Part shown: piece by piece, positions 5,947-10,346 of the stretch | How positions within the stretch are numbered: the first letter of the stretch is position 1 | How the letters are laid out: each line of letters begins with the position of its first letter | DNA from: a virus | Length of the DNA stretch: 50,094 nt | Virus record (IMG/VR): IMGVR_UViG_3300021368_002037 | Span: 1-50,094 of that record | Direction: 5' to 3' (one strand) | Notes under the pieces: model-generated | Told to the model about the DNA's origin: nothing | The model's input: only the letters and a program-made list of their open reading frames with translations | Database searches by the model: none | Translations under genes and position numbers: made by a program

Positions 5947-6489
5947 TCATAAAACCACTATATTATATATCGAGTATTTGAAAGTCACTTGTGCGGTGAC
6001 GTAATTGACATCTGTTGCTGTCGCATTAAAGTCAATAGTTGAAAGGGATGTTGGAAACAGATCTTGGAAGTCTACCCTTGCCACTTCATTGTAGTTGCTG
6101 TTGTAAATAAACAAACTTGCGTCTGAATATTCATTTAATGGTGTTCTGGCATCAGGATCATCATTGTATGGATCTTTTCTTTTCAAATCCATGAACTGTT
6201 GAACATCCTCTGGATAACCTAATCCAGTCAACCAGTTGTGAACCTGCATATAATTTTCTAAATTCTCATCTACAAAGAAAGACAATGTGAGATCAGAATA
6301 TGTTAATTTATCCCCAGGTACTGGAGCATCTTTCAGATATGTTGGTTGTAATGCAAATCCAAGATTGATACCAGGAATTGAAGCAGAATTGGAAAAGAAA
6401 TCTACTTTAGGGATTTTAGTAATAGAAAATTTAAATCCAATAGGAGACAAATAGTTCCTATTGTCAATTTGATTATTCCAGGGTTTCAT
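5947..6489 (-). CDS. gp19-family tail-tube-like protein (second copy)
   Basis: A 180-residue protein with the layout of T4 gp19 tail tube proteins (T4 163 aa): 'FKFSITKIPKVDFFSNSASIPGINL', then 'VPGDKLTYSDLTLSFFVDENLENYMQVHNWLTGL', then 'DASLFIYNSNYN', then 'FQDLFPTSLSTIDFNATATDV..VTAQVTFKYSIY'. The true tube gene 19 lies at 12555-13190 beside 18, so this is a paralogue located between the capsid and recombination blocks. It could form a specialised ring, for example at the tube tip or the hub-tube junction. That function is inferred; the fold assignment is moderately firm. The ATG at 6489 overlaps the stop of the upstream small gene (ATGA). Confidence 0.8.
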   Translation of the reverse strand: MKPWNNQIDNRNYLSPIGFKFSITKIPKVDFFSNSASIPGINLGFALQPTYLKDAPVPGDKLTYSDLTLSFFVDENLENYMQVHNWLTGLGYPEDVQQFMDLKRKDPYNDDPDARTPLNEYSDASLFIYNSNYNEVARVDFQDLFPTSLSTIDFNATATDVNYVTAQVTFKYSIYNIVVL

Positions 6490-6716
6490 TCTCCTCCACC
6501 CCCATTTCCACCATCACCATTGCCACCATTTCCGTTTCCACCATTACCATTACCATTTTCAGAGGACTCCTTCTCATCTTTCTCCAAATATCCACCATGG
6601 CCAATGTGATATCCTAAAGGAATTTTCTTGCACTTTTTATCACTAAAGCACCAATATTTTCCAGTTGGACATCTTTTCGCTGCTGCTTCTTCAATGAAAT
6701 GGTTGAAAGACTTCAT
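6486..6716 (-). CDS. Small Cys- and Gly/Asn-rich protein, candidate capsid-internal protein
   Basis: 76 residues in three parts. Residues 1-11 (MKSFNHFIEEA) closely resemble the T4 capsid-targeting sequence of internal proteins (MKTYQEFIAEA) and contain a gp21-type cleavage site, I-E-E before A11, matching the consensus [LI]-x-E before A/G/S. Residues 14-45 hold three cysteines (16, 23, 29) in a KRCPTGKYWCFSDKKCK block. Residues 53-76 are a low-complexity Gly/Asn tail ending in acid. It sits two genes downstream of major capsid gene 23. The inference is that it is packaged in the prohead, trimmed by gp21 and left inside the head. No function is known to me. Confidence 0.72.
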   Translation of the reverse strand: MKSFNHFIEEAAAKRCPTGKYWCFSDKKCKKIPLGYHIGHGGYLEKDEKESSENGNGNGGNGNGGNGDGGNGGGGE

Positions 6717-6733: not shown

Positions 6734-6931
6734 TTAGTGTTCAAGATTGTATTCCATTATCATTGCAAATAATCTCGCTTTGAGGAATATTAGATATTCT
6801 TGCTCTTCATATGGTCTTCTTGGCGCTCCAGGCCACACTTCAATTGAATAGCAAACATGGTCATACAATAACCGTAGTTCATCTATTCCCATAGTAATTT
6901 GCATCATCCATTCTTCATCTAATGGATTCAT
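6734..6931 (-). CDS. Small conserved unknown downstream of gene 23
   Basis: 65 residues, MNPLDEEWMMQITMGIDELRLLYDHVCYSIEVWPGAPRRPYEEQEYL..., predicted mostly helical, with a central WPGAPRRP turn. It has no recognisable domain. It starts 33 bases after a perfect late promoter (6964-6971) and is the first gene of a late unit placed just after the gene 23 terminator. The following gene is the candidate capsid-internal protein, so a virion or assembly role is plausible, but this is inference from position only. Confidence 0.65.
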   Translation of the reverse strand: MNPLDEEWMMQITMGIDELRLLYDHVCYSIEVWPGAPRRPYEEQEYLIFLKARLFAMIMEYNLEH

Positions 6932-6963: not shown

Positions 6964-6971
6964 TATTTATA
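6964..6971 (-). promoter_or_regulatory. T4-type late promoter TATAAATA
   Basis: A perfect TATAAATA on the minus strand, 33 bases upstream of the 65-aa gene and only 17 bases beyond the end of the gene 23 terminator stem. It restarts transcription for the 65-aa, capsid-internal and tube-like genes after gene 23 has been terminated. Confidence 0.8.
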
Positions 6972-6987
6972 ATGTATCCGCATGAAC

Positions 6988-7016
6988 AAAAAAAGACCCC
7001 CCTTTCGGGAGGTCTT
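6988..7016 (-). terminator. Rho-independent terminator after gene 23
   Basis: On the minus strand AAGACCTCCC (7016-7007), loop GAAA, GGGGGGTCTT (7002-6993) forms a 10-bp stem with one G-U pair and a stable GNRA tetraloop, followed directly by a run of seven U (6994-6988). It begins 20 bases after the gene 23 stop codon. It is the strongest intrinsic terminator seen in the window. Confidence 0.93.
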
Positions 7017-7035: not shown

Positions 7036-8439
7036 TCACATGAGGTTGTTAACTTTAACGCGACGATAGTAGCGGTTGGAGGATGCCTTGAGGCGTCCCA
7101 GTCCCTGAGTGGTTCCTTCTGCGAATGGGTTAGCGACCATGCCGTAGCGGGTCTTGAATCCAATCTTGGGTTGGAAGGTGTCCTGACCAACGGCACGAAC
7201 CATTTGGAGAGGAACATAAGGGCAATAGAACAGACCAGCGTCATAAGGGGAAGAACCCTTATAACCAGTAACGAAGTACTGAGAAGCAGCACCGTTAGCA
7301 GAATAAGGATCGATGTAGACGCGATACTTACCTTGCAGAACACCAGCGAAGGTGTTACCGGTATCATCAACGTTCAGGTTAGCGTTCAGAGCAGGAGTGT
7401 AGTCCAGAACACCAGCCATGGTCAGAGCAGAGGCAACATCTGCAGAGCAGAGGATCATGTTGCCCTTTCCGCGACGAGTTCTTTGGGCGATAGCATTTGC
7501 TTCGCGCTCGATTTGGAAAAGCAGACCTTTGAACTTCTCAACAGACCAGCGACCGTTGGAGTCAACGTCGAGGTCGAATACGCCGCTGCTAGCAACGTTT
7601 GCTTGGGCGCCTGTTTCAGCAGCCTTATAGATGGTACGGATAACCTCACGGTTGATTTCAGCAAGAATCTCGGTGCTAAGGATATTAGCGAGTTCTGCTT
7701 CAGCGTTCAGACCGTGGATAGCCTTGAGGTCTTGGGCGAGTTCCAGTGAATACTCAGCCTTCAGTGCTCTAGACTTAGCGGTTACGGTGACTTTCTCGAT
7801 CGAGAATGCCATCTGGTTGAACTGGTCACCAGATCCGTCTCCGAGATCCTCAGCGTCTCCAGTGTGCATACCCTGACCAGTTGCATAGTCAAATTGAGAG
7901 CCACCGTTAAGGAGACCGGGGTTAGAACCAGTCTGAGAGTCTGTACCGAAACCAACAGAAGAAGCATCAGAACCGGAAACGTATCCACCTTGGGTGAGAT
8001 CGCCACCATCGTTCTGACCAGAGAATGCGGTATCTGCTTCGTCGAACAGAGCTTCGGTTCCACTCTGGTTGGTGTAGCGGGAACGCATTGCGAAGATCAG
8101 TCCAGTAGGACCGTTCATTGGTTGTACGCCAGCGAGGTCATAAGCGACCAGGTTAGGCATTGAACGACGGATCAGTGAGATCAGTACTGGGTCGAAACCT
8201 GCAGTAGGACCGCCAGCAGTAGCGCCGCCACCGAAACCACCAGATGCACCAGCAGCATTAGCAGCGTTGGTGGGTGCTTCGGAGAGGAAGTTTCTTTCCT
8301 CGTTTAAAAATTTTTCTTGGTTCTCCAGGAGAACTGCGGTTACCATTCTACGGTGTGAATCAGAGATTTTCTCTGCGCCATCATAGTCGAGTAATGGTGC
8401 CCACTTCTCCTGCAGCTGTTCAGCGTTGAACATTTGCAT
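7036..8439 (-). CDS. gp23: gp23 major capsid protein
   Basis: Forms the hexamers of the head shell. The 467 residues align by eye with T4 gp23 (521): N-terminal 'LQEKWAPLLD' and 'NQEKF' blocks, 'RRSMPNLVAYDLAGVQPMNGPTGLIFAMRSRY', 'AEYSLELAQDLKAIHGLNAEAELANILSTEI', and the C-terminal 'GFKTRYGMVANPFAEG' and 'YYRRVKV'. A gp21 maturation site, F-L-S-E before A55, removes the 54-residue scaffold-binding leader; T4 has FLTE before A at its site. The start is the ATG at 8439, about 9 bases after GAGG. Codon choice appears richer in G/C-ending codons than its neighbours, as expected for the most highly expressed gene. It is flanked by a late promoter and a strong terminator. Confidence 0.98.
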   Translation of the reverse strand: MQMFNAEQLQEKWAPLLDYDGAEKISDSHRRMVTAVLLENQEKFLNEERNFLSEAPTNAANAAGASGGFGGGATAGGPTAGFDPVLISLIRRSMPNLVAYDLAGVQPMNGPTGLIFAMRSRYTNQSGTEALFDEADTAFSGQNDGGDLTQGGYVSGSDASSVGFGTDSQTGSNPGLLNGGSQFDYATGQGMHTGDAEDLGDGSGDQFNQMAFSIEKVTVTAKSRALKAEYSLELAQDLKAIHGLNAEAELANILSTEILAEINREVIRTIYKAAETGAQANVASSGVFDLDVDSNGRWSVEKFKGLLFQIEREANAIAQRTRRGKGNMILCSADVASALTMAGVLDYTPALNANLNVDDTGNTFAGVLQGKYRVYIDPYSANGAASQYFVTGYKGSSPYDAGLFYCPYVPLQMVRAVGQDTFQPKIGFKTRYGMVANPFAEGTTQGLGRLKASSNRYYRRVKVNNLM

Positions 8440-8493: not shown

Positions 8494-9639
8494 TTACTTT
8501 TTAGTGACTCTCTGAAGAGCAGTAAGGTATCCTTCCATTGATCCAGAAACATTCTGGTGGATTGAAGTTTCTTCTGCGACAAATTCAGCAGAATCACTTT
8601 GAGTACCGGCGTTCTTCCTTGAAGGGAAGTATGCTTCTCTCAAGGTAACCAGTTTCTCACGGTAGTCGGTTTCACTTTCAAACTCAACACTTTCAGCGAG
8701 AGAAGCGAGTTTTTCTTTCTGAGTGACGGCAAGTCCTTCAGTAACTTCACTGAAAATAGTATCAGTGGTTGACTCGGCTAATCTGCGATTCAGAGCAACA
8801 TTTCTGTCGATCTGCTCATTGAGTTTTCCTTCCATTTCATCAAGTTTATTTACCATGCTTTCAAGTACATCGTATTTATCTTCAGGGATTGAAACATAAT
8901 GTTCTTCAAAAAGTTGCTTCATACCGGAGAGGAACGACTCAGACATTTCTGCCTTCAGTCCTTCTTCTACGGAAAGTGAATTCTCTTGAATCCACTCGTC
9001 AGCAACATACTCCAAATAGGAATCAACACGCTCTGAAAGTTCAGTTCTCAGAGTAGCAACTTGCTCTTCAATAGCAGTTGCATAGTTTGCTTCCATTTCT
9101 TCTTTGATTTCTGAAACCTTAGCATTGATTGCAGTTTCAAAAATGATTTTTGCTTTTTCCTGGAACTCTTCGGAGAGTTCTTCGCCTTGGAGAAGAGCAG
9201 AGACATCAGCATCGATGTCAATTTCTACAACTTCTTCAGACTCAGCAACAACTTCCTCAGTAGTTTCTTCCTCAGACTCACTGAGTTCGTTTTCTACTTC
9301 GGTACGGAGTTCCTCTTCTTCAGTAACTTCCTCTTCGGAAACTACTTCCTGCTCAGCAGAAATTTCGGACTCCTCTTCTTCTTTCATACCAGCAGGTGCT
9401 GGATCGGCAGGTTTTGCACCTTTGTTAACAACATCCTTAACTTGCTTAAGGGTAGCGCCGGGTGTCTTCAGCTTTGCTGAATCATCATCGGCTTTGTAGT
9501 TTTCTGGGGTAGGACCGCCAAGATCTTCGACACTTGCACCAGATGGTTTTACCATTGGTTCTGCTGGTTTTGCACCGGCAGTTACAGCGTTTTCTTTAAC
9601 GTCTACTTCCATTTCTTGTAAGTTAGTGCCACTGGACAT
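8494..9639 (-). CDS. gp22: gp22 prohead scaffolding core protein
   Basis: The main internal scaffold of the prohead, later degraded by gp21. It has 381 residues (T4 269). Residues 1-90 are Pro/Ala/Lys-rich, 92-150 form an extremely Glu-rich low-complexity segment, and 150-340 are long alpha helices with coiled-coil character (for example 'KLDEMEGKLNEQIDRNVALNRRLAES'). Candidate gp21 sites of the [LI]-x-E-[AGS] type include LAE-S and LRE-A near residue 335. The ATG at 9639 follows GGAGAG. The gene lies between protease 21 and capsid 23, as in T4. Position and composition make this assignment firm, although the acidic insertion makes it longer than T4's. Confidence 0.9.
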   Translation of the reverse strand: MSSGTNLQEMEVDVKENAVTAGAKPAEPMVKPSGASVEDLGGPTPENYKADDDSAKLKTPGATLKQVKDVVNKGAKPADPAPAGMKEEEESEISAEQEVVSEEEVTEEEELRTEVENELSESEEETTEEVVAESEEVVEIDIDADVSALLQGEELSEEFQEKAKIIFETAINAKVSEIKEEMEANYATAIEEQVATLRTELSERVDSYLEYVADEWIQENSLSVEEGLKAEMSESFLSGMKQLFEEHYVSIPEDKYDVLESMVNKLDEMEGKLNEQIDRNVALNRRLAESTTDTIFSEVTEGLAVTQKEKLASLAESVEFESETDYREKLVTLREAYFPSRKNAGTQSDSAEFVAEETSIHQNVSGSMEGYLTALQRVTKK

Positions 9640-9681: not shown

Positions 9682-9700
9682 TATTTATTTATAATTTATA
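9682..9700 (-). promoter_or_regulatory. Overlapping late promoters upstream of gene 22
   Basis: The minus strand reads TATAAATTATAAATAAATA: a TATAAATT (9693-9700) that contains the gene 21 stop codon, a perfect TATAAATA (9686-9693), and an AATAAATA (9682-9689), each overlapping the next. All are 42-60 bases upstream of the gene 22 ATG. Confidence 0.75.
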
Positions 9701-10346
9701 GATTTGACAGAAAGTCGCCCCATAACTGGAGTTTGTGCTCTTCGAGCGCTTTCTGATCAACTAGCGTATTTATCCTCTTTCTGGCAGCGGAGCAGAATCT
9801 CTCACGGAGAATTCCACCCTCCCATACCCATTCCTTTCCTTCCATAATTCCGTCTACAAAAGCATCAGGTGCGGAGGGGTCAGCAACAATATCTGCTGCA
9901 GTCGCCAGCATAAAATCTTCACCAACAATATTGATACCTTCGTTGTTCAGTCTTAATGAACCGACACCACGAGAAGAAACTCCAAGTTTAACACCTTCAC
10001 CAATAAGTGATTGTGCAATCTTACCCATTGGAGTACTCAGAAGTTGTGCCTTACCGTAAATGTTGGAACCTCTTTGCTCAAGTTTCACAATCTTGTGTGA
10101 TACACGGTCAAGGTTGATAGTTGGACCATCTGGGTGACCAAGTTCACCAAGTGCTCTACCTTTATTAGTATATGCTTCATTGTATCTACCAACTTCTTTT
10201 GCAAGAGTTTGGATAGGATACATACGACCATTACGGTTTTTGATGTCACCCTGAAGGAAAGTTCCTTCGATGTACATCTTCTTTGAAGAACCCTTACCCT
10301 CGGTAATAAATTCTACGGTTTCAACTTCTTCTCTGATGAGTTTCAT
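9696..10346 (-). CDS. gp21: gp21 prohead maturation protease
   Basis: Serine protease that trims gp23, gp22 and internal proteins at [LI]-x-E sites during head maturation. The 216 residues match T4 gp21 in length (212). The catalytic candidates are His71 in GELGHPDG and Ser124 or Ser125 in LGVSSRGVGS, the arrangement of the herpes-like/T4 prohead protease clan. The N-terminus contains FITE before G17, a possible self-cleavage site. The SD is AAGGAAAG before the ATG at 10346. It follows gene 67 and the 85-aa gene in the same unit. Confidence 0.95.
   Translation of the reverse strand: MKLIREEVETVEFITEGKGSSKKMYIEGTFLQGDIKNRNGRMYPIQTLAKEVGRYNEAYTNKGRALGELGHPDGPTINLDRVSHKIVKLEQRGSNIYGKAQLLSTPMGKIAQSLIGEGVKLGVSSRGVGSLRLNNEGINIVGEDFMLATAADIVADPSAPDAFVDGIMEGKEWVWEGGILRERFCSAARKRINTLVDQKALEEHKLQLWGDFLSNL

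What the first reader, a model, noticed from the sequence alone, without database searches (positions are those of the whole stretch)
6486..6716. Candidate capsid-internal protein with a T4-like targeting peptide
The first 11 residues MKSFNHFIEEA closely parallel the T4 capsid-targeting sequence MKTYQEFIAEA and end at a perfect gp21 cleavage site (I-E-E before A). The remaining protein has three cysteines and a Gly/Asn/Asp-rich tail. The gene is late, next to gene 23. Proteins of this type in T4 are injected with DNA and counter host defences (for example IPI against a restriction enzyme), so this could be an injected anti-defence protein of a cyanophage.
Basis: partly seen in the sequence, partly recalled or inferred. 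Interest (0 to 1): 0.6.

Follow-up and report, generated by a model that had tools for sequence, protein, structure and literature searches.

The report
Cyanophage head-internal protein with targeting leader
A small late gene of a marine cyanophage makes a protein whose first ten residues match, position for position, the address label that coliphage T4 uses to load proteins into its head; the same label sits on dozens of unrelated marine phage proteins, so it marks virion cargo, but nothing shows that this cargo fights host defences.

Summary
The 76-aa ORF (6716-6486, minus strand) is a conserved late gene between gp23 and a tail-tube gene. Its leader MKSFNHFIEE|A carries the residues that genetics assigns to T4 capsid targeting (4, 7) and gp21 processing (8, 10). 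In 27 non-redundant relatives exactly these positions are fixed while 3, 5, 6 and 9 vary. The same motif search finds only ipII and ipIII in T4. In cyanophages it mainly finds the NMNAT/cytidylyltransferase that mass spectrometry places in virions. In IMG/VR it heads 37 unrelated protein clusters. A homologous Cys-module protein of S-SCSM1 is itself listed as a virion protein. So: very probably a CTS-targeted, gp21-trimmed internal head protein. Virion presence and cleavage are not shown for this protein; injection is inferred. The anti-defence role is unsupported: the mature part is strongly conserved (dN/dS about 0.1) and has no defence-related match. Unexpected: the same Cys module is shuffled into large multi-module virion proteins whose module junctions are enriched in gp21-type sites, suggesting head-internal polyproteins. 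The held library has no account of capsid-targeting leaders in cyanophages.

The parts
6486..6716 (-). ORF of the 76-aa CTS plus Cys-module protein
   Evidence: 481 IMG/VR relatives; dN/dS about 0.1
6687..6716 (-). capsid-targeting leader, residues 1-10 MKSFNHFIEE, predicted helix 2-13; predicted gp21 cut after E10
   Evidence: (M1 K2 F7 E10 invariant; F4 I8 A11 at least 90%), PMC9026906 for the T4 positions
6579..6671 (-). Cys module, residues 16-46, predicted two beta-hairpins
6489..6566 (-). disordered acidic Gly/Asn-rich tail, residues 51-76
   Evidence: pLDDT below 50; pI 4.05
6491..6497 (-). GGAGGAG, Shine-Dalgarno-like sequence of the tube gene, encoded by the Gly codons of the tail; stop and start overlap at 6486-6489
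5947..6489 (-). tail-tube gene (phrog_45), directly downstream
6734..6931 (-). 65-aa ORF of phrog_628, between gp23 and the target in this lineage
6964..6971 (-). TATAAATA, T4-type late promoter 33 nt upstream of the 65-aa ORF
6993..7016 (-). intrinsic terminator after gp23
7036..8439 (-). gp23 major head protein
   Evidence: phrog_138
8275..8286 (-). predicted gp21 site of gp23 (L-S-E|A, residues 52-55)
8494..9639 (-). gp22 scaffold, presumed partner of the leader
   Evidence: phrog_237
9696..10346 (-). gp21 prohead protease, presumed processing enzyme
   Evidence: phrog_207

Best explanation
It is a T4-type internal head protein. Made late, its N-terminal helix (Phe4 and Phe7) binds the gp22-based prohead core, so it is enclosed when gp23 polymerises; gp21 then cuts after Glu10, leaving a 66-aa mature protein (AAAKRCPTG...) of a small basic Cys module plus a disordered acidic tail inside the DNA-filled head, from which it most likely enters the cyanobacterium with the DNA. 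Shown here by sequence: leader with all T4 functional positions, protease site, late-gene location, conservation, and use of the same leader on known virion proteins. Inferred: core binding, cleavage, presence in this virion, injection. What the Cys module does is not identified; a conserved binding role (DNA inside the head, or a conserved host factor) fits better than a variable anti-restriction role.
For: T4 genetics puts targeting at residues 4 and 7 and processing at 8 and 10 of the leader (PMC9026906); in 27 non-redundant relatives F7 and E10 are invariant and F4, I8, A11 at least 90%, the others vary. When relatives are chosen by the Cys module alone, 57 of 61 distinct N-terminal modules carry the leader; of the four without, at least S-SCSM1_29 is a multi-module fusion. 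The place between gp23 and the tube gene is kept, co-directional, in most of 88 loci. The leader search returns ipII and ipIII and nothing else in T4; in S-SCSM1, P-SSM4, S-SM2, Syn9 and P-TIM68 it returns the NMNAT/cytidylyltransferase, found in virions by mass spectrometry (PMC9602691; T4-GC190 in PMC3037559). In an IMG/VR sample 37 unrelated clusters share the leader. The Cys-module protein S-SCSM1_29 is annotated as a virion protein and is the top match in predicted viral structures.
Against: No proteomics of this phage; the only directly virion-detected homologue (S-SCSM1_29) has the module without the leader. Leader-bearing S-SCSM1_30 is not labelled as a virion protein. The mature protein is only mildly basic (+1 overall), whereas T4 internal proteins are described as basic.
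Confidence: 0.85

Rival explanations
1. Injected anti-defence protein: after delivery the Cys module inhibits a host restriction or other defence enzyme, like T4 IPI.
For: Same delivery route as T4 IPI; small size; phage-restricted family (1 relative in 84,980 cellular species genomes).
Against: dN/dS about 0.10 and eight residues invariant even across multi-module relatives, whereas T4 IPs are described as highly diverse with only the leader conserved (PMC3012670); no defence-related match.
Confidence: 0.12
2. Core or DNA-organising protein: it is in the head, as in the best explanation, but works there (scaffold assembly or DNA packing, like T4 IPIII) and any entry into the host is incidental.
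For: Strong conservation, lysine-rich module (+4 for residues 11-50), location and co-expression with gp23 and tail genes, reuse of the module in large virion proteins.
Against: The stand-alone gene is not found in most cultured cyanophage records, so it is not a universal assembly factor.
Confidence: 0.35
3. Not a head protein: the leader is a chance resemblance and the ORF is a tail or neck accessory next to the tube gene.
For: Overlaps the tail-tube gene and carries its ribosome site; no direct proteomics.
Against: Leader never met in shuffles; site-specific conservation; leader-bearing virion enzymes elsewhere.
Confidence: 0.05

Closest known systems
T4 internal proteins IPI, IPII, IPIII (ipI, ipII, ipIII)
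   Same: Leader with aromatic residue 4 and F7; in IPII and IPIII also I8, E10, A11 at the same places; small protein with a prohead protease site behind the leader.
   Different: Mature part unrelated; Cys module and Gly/Asn tail; conserved rather than hypervariable; encoded in the gp23-tube gene cluster.
Cyanophage NMNAT/cytidylyltransferase (T4-GC190; S-SCSM1_91)
   Same: Same leader, detected in virions.
   Different: Enzyme of about 400 aa, unrelated mature part.
Multi-module virion proteins of phrog_727 / phrog_3477 / T4-GC119 (S-SCSM1_29, S-SSM7_236)
   Same: Contain the same Cys module and Gly/Asn linker.
   Different: Usually no leader; a string of several modules (DUF6321 and others) with gp21-type sites between them.
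Polyvalent proteins of phages (PMC5512222)
   Same: The idea of multidomain proteins delivered with phage DNA.
   Different: Not compared domain by domain here; the target itself is a single module.

Membership tests
T4-type CTS internal head protein | N-terminal leader with targeting residues 4 and 7 and processing residues 8 and 10 | tested here: met
   against PMC9026906
T4-type CTS internal head protein | prohead protease consensus directly after the leader, same type as the phage's own gp23 site | tested here: met
   I-E-E|A here, L-S-E|A in gp23
T4-type CTS internal head protein | late gene of a T4-like phage encoding gp21 and gp22 | tested here: met
   lateness itself is inferred from location and promoter motif
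T4-type CTS internal head protein | present in virions | not tested
   only the homologous module in S-SCSM1_29 is in a listed virion protein
T4-type CTS internal head protein | cleaved in the head and ejected with DNA | not testable with these tools
   needs proteomics and infection experiments
T4 IPI anti-restriction inhibitor | sequence or fold relation to mature IPI | tested here: not met
   no PDB sequence match, no significant fold match
Anti-defence proteins | match to a known defence or counter-defence family, or diversifying selection | tested here: not met
   the PADLOC library covers mainly defence proteins, so the first half is weak
phrog_727/3477 multi-module virion proteins | shares a homologous module | tested here: met
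   (phrog_30733, 1.5e-8)

The most novel reading that the evidence does not exclude
Marine T4-like phages use one short capsid-targeting leader as a general loading system for a large pool of unrelated cargo (NAD-metabolism enzymes, kinases, acetyltransferases, small Cys modules), and also load large head-internal polyproteins built of shuffled modules that gp21 cuts apart in the head; the stand-alone protein here is one such module with its own label.
Probability: 0.45. Interest if true: 0.75.

Novelty: new member of a known kind. Interest (0 to 1): 0.5.

Why it matters
T4's loading label is a classic system, but the held literature has no account of it in cyanophages (one paper, a T4 review, holds both terms), although these are among the most abundant viruses in the sea. 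A simple motif predicts which of the many unknown cyanophage proteins are carried in the head and probably delivered at infection, and makes that directly testable by proteomics.

Tried and rejected
Pfam, NCBIfam and PADLOC scans of the protein: nothing. PDB sequence search: nothing. Fold search of the whole protein and of the mature domain against the PDB: no significant match; weak resemblances to small eukaryotic Cys-rich hairpins (mGlu, BCMA) have E above 1 and are not used. Zinc binding by three Cys plus His: rejected as a general feature, because the His at 37 is Arg, Lys, Tyr or Phe in relatives. Terminal Glu as a leftover gp21 site: rejected, it comes from the GAATGA overlap with the tube gene. 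The number of TATAAATA sites is what chance gives; only their strand and place are telling.

Full report
What is there. On the minus strand, 6716-6486, lies a 76-codon ORF with an ATG start: MKSFNHFIEEAAAKRCPTGKYWCFSDKKCKKIPLGYHIGHGGYLEKDEKESSENGNGNGGNGNGGNGDGGNGGGGE. Around it in the same direction are gp20, gp21, gp22, gp23, a 65-aa phrog_628 ORF, then the target, a tail-tube protein, uvsY and uvsW (gp20 and uvsW by position and sequence). A perfect TATAAATA lies at 6964-6971, behind the gp23 terminator (6993-7016) and before the 65-aa ORF; all five TATAAATA of the window are on the coding strand, 20-47 nt before gene starts. The target overlaps the tube gene by ATGA, and the codons of its Gly tail hold the GGAGGAG that looks like that gene's ribosome site.

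The leader. T4 genetics on IPIII places targeting at residues 4 and 7 and processing at 8 and 10 (PMC9026906). The protein here has F4, F7, I8, E10, A11. The window's gp23 has one site of that type, LSE|A at 54/55, near where T4 gp23 is cut (own knowledge: residue 65); gp22 has five, gp21 three, and the portal, tube and other neighbours none. In the window the leader pattern occurs once and never in 100 shuffles. In nine sequences, 12 N-termini fit the strict motif against 0.005 in shuffles, and 12 of 20 MKx[FY]xxF starts continue into the protease site against a background of 0.4% per position; the reversed pattern gives no hits.

Controls and cargo. In T4 the motif gives exactly ipII and ipIII, and the looser core also ipI. 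In cyanophages it gives mainly the NMNAT/cytidylyltransferase of S-SCSM1, P-SSM4, S-SM2, Syn9 and P-TIM68 and, by its sequence, of AG-345-L05. This protein is in virions by mass spectrometry in S-SCSM1 (PMC9602691) and as T4-GC190 in S-SM1 (PMC3037559). A capped scan of IMG/VR gave 120 usable ORFs in 37 unrelated clusters that share only the leader; 38 of the 119 loci also hold T4-like genes related to those of the window phage. Cargo includes cytidylyltransferases, an adenylate kinase, acetyltransferases, a kinase-type P-loop protein, DUF6267, a deoxyribonucleotidase-like protein and DUF6321. The pattern fixes the leader, so leader conservation in this set is imposed; the variety of cargo is not.

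The family. 481 IMG/VR stretches encode relatives. In 27 non-redundant ones M1, K2, F7, E10 are invariant and F4, I8, A11 nearly so; 3, 5, 6 and 9 vary. Selection by the Cys module alone gives the leader in 57 of 61 N-terminal modules. dN/dS is about 0.1 in leader and module (that set was chosen with a leader regex). Most loci keep the gp23-target-tube order. Only one relative occurs in 84,980 cellular genomes. The mature domain is predicted as two beta-hairpins (pLDDT 79), the leader as a helix and the tail as disordered; no solved structure matches.

Shuffled modules. The same Cys module is found inside larger proteins: S-SCSM1_29 (517 aa, virion protein), S-SSM7_236 (994 aa), a 373-aa P-TIM68 protein at the same locus, fusions to DUF192, and others. 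These strings of modules have 8.0 gp21-type sites per 1000 aa against 3.0 in other ORFs, and sites lie just before modules: 22 of 25 for the WF module (control 16%), 11 of 17 for the KDKKGKG module (control 12%); for DUF6321 an E[AGS] sits at one fixed offset in 79%, though only 38% have the full site (control 14%), and the CWxGY module is weaker (37% against 16%). DUF6321 also occurs alone with the leader, as the Cys module does here. Homology of module starts could explain part of this, so polyprotein cutting is a hypothesis.

Function. Against an IPI-like arms-race role: purifying selection and eight residues invariant across all contexts of the module, no defence-related match, and reuse in large virion proteins. 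For a conserved role: the same facts. Which role, inside the head or in the host, cannot be told from sequence.

Verdict. Capsid targeting and trimming: very likely. Delivery into the host: likely by analogy with T4. Anti-defence: not supported, not excluded. The protein is a new member of a known kind; the breadth of the leader in marine phages and the possible polyproteins are the parts worth following.

Noticed in passing
L094-L212 (IMG/VR loci): The MKxFxxFIxEA leader heads 37 unrelated protein clusters, including NMNAT, adenylate kinase, acetyltransferase and kinase-like proteins: a catalogue of probable virion cargo of marine T4-like phages.
   Followed up: partly
L082 4998-6551, L085 2274-5258, L311-L390: Large multi-module virion proteins have gp21-type sites concentrated at module junctions, as if they were head-internal polyproteins.
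   Followed up: partly
L048, L077, L078, L081: Leader-like start plus Cys module plus Gly/Asn linker fused to a DUF192 domain (Pfam match shown for L048).
   Followed up: no
L393 (T4 NC_000866 18966-19130, minus): T4 gp61.1, a 54-aa protein of unknown function, starts MKTFKEFIKED, a capsid-targeting-like leader with Asp after the Glu; it may be an unrecognised T4 internal protein.
   Followed up: no
window 6964, 9686, 10844, 25682, 34712: All five TATAAATA sites are on the coding strand 20-47 nt before gene starts, a map of T4-type late promoters.
   Followed up: partly
window 6489-6566: The variable Gly/Asn-rich tail doubles as the likely ribosome-binding site of the tail-tube gene; the same arrangement recurs in relatives.
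   Followed up: partly
L391: One relative in a marine Gammaproteobacteria MAG contig (NZHF01000007.1), probably a phage contig binned with the host.
   Followed up: no
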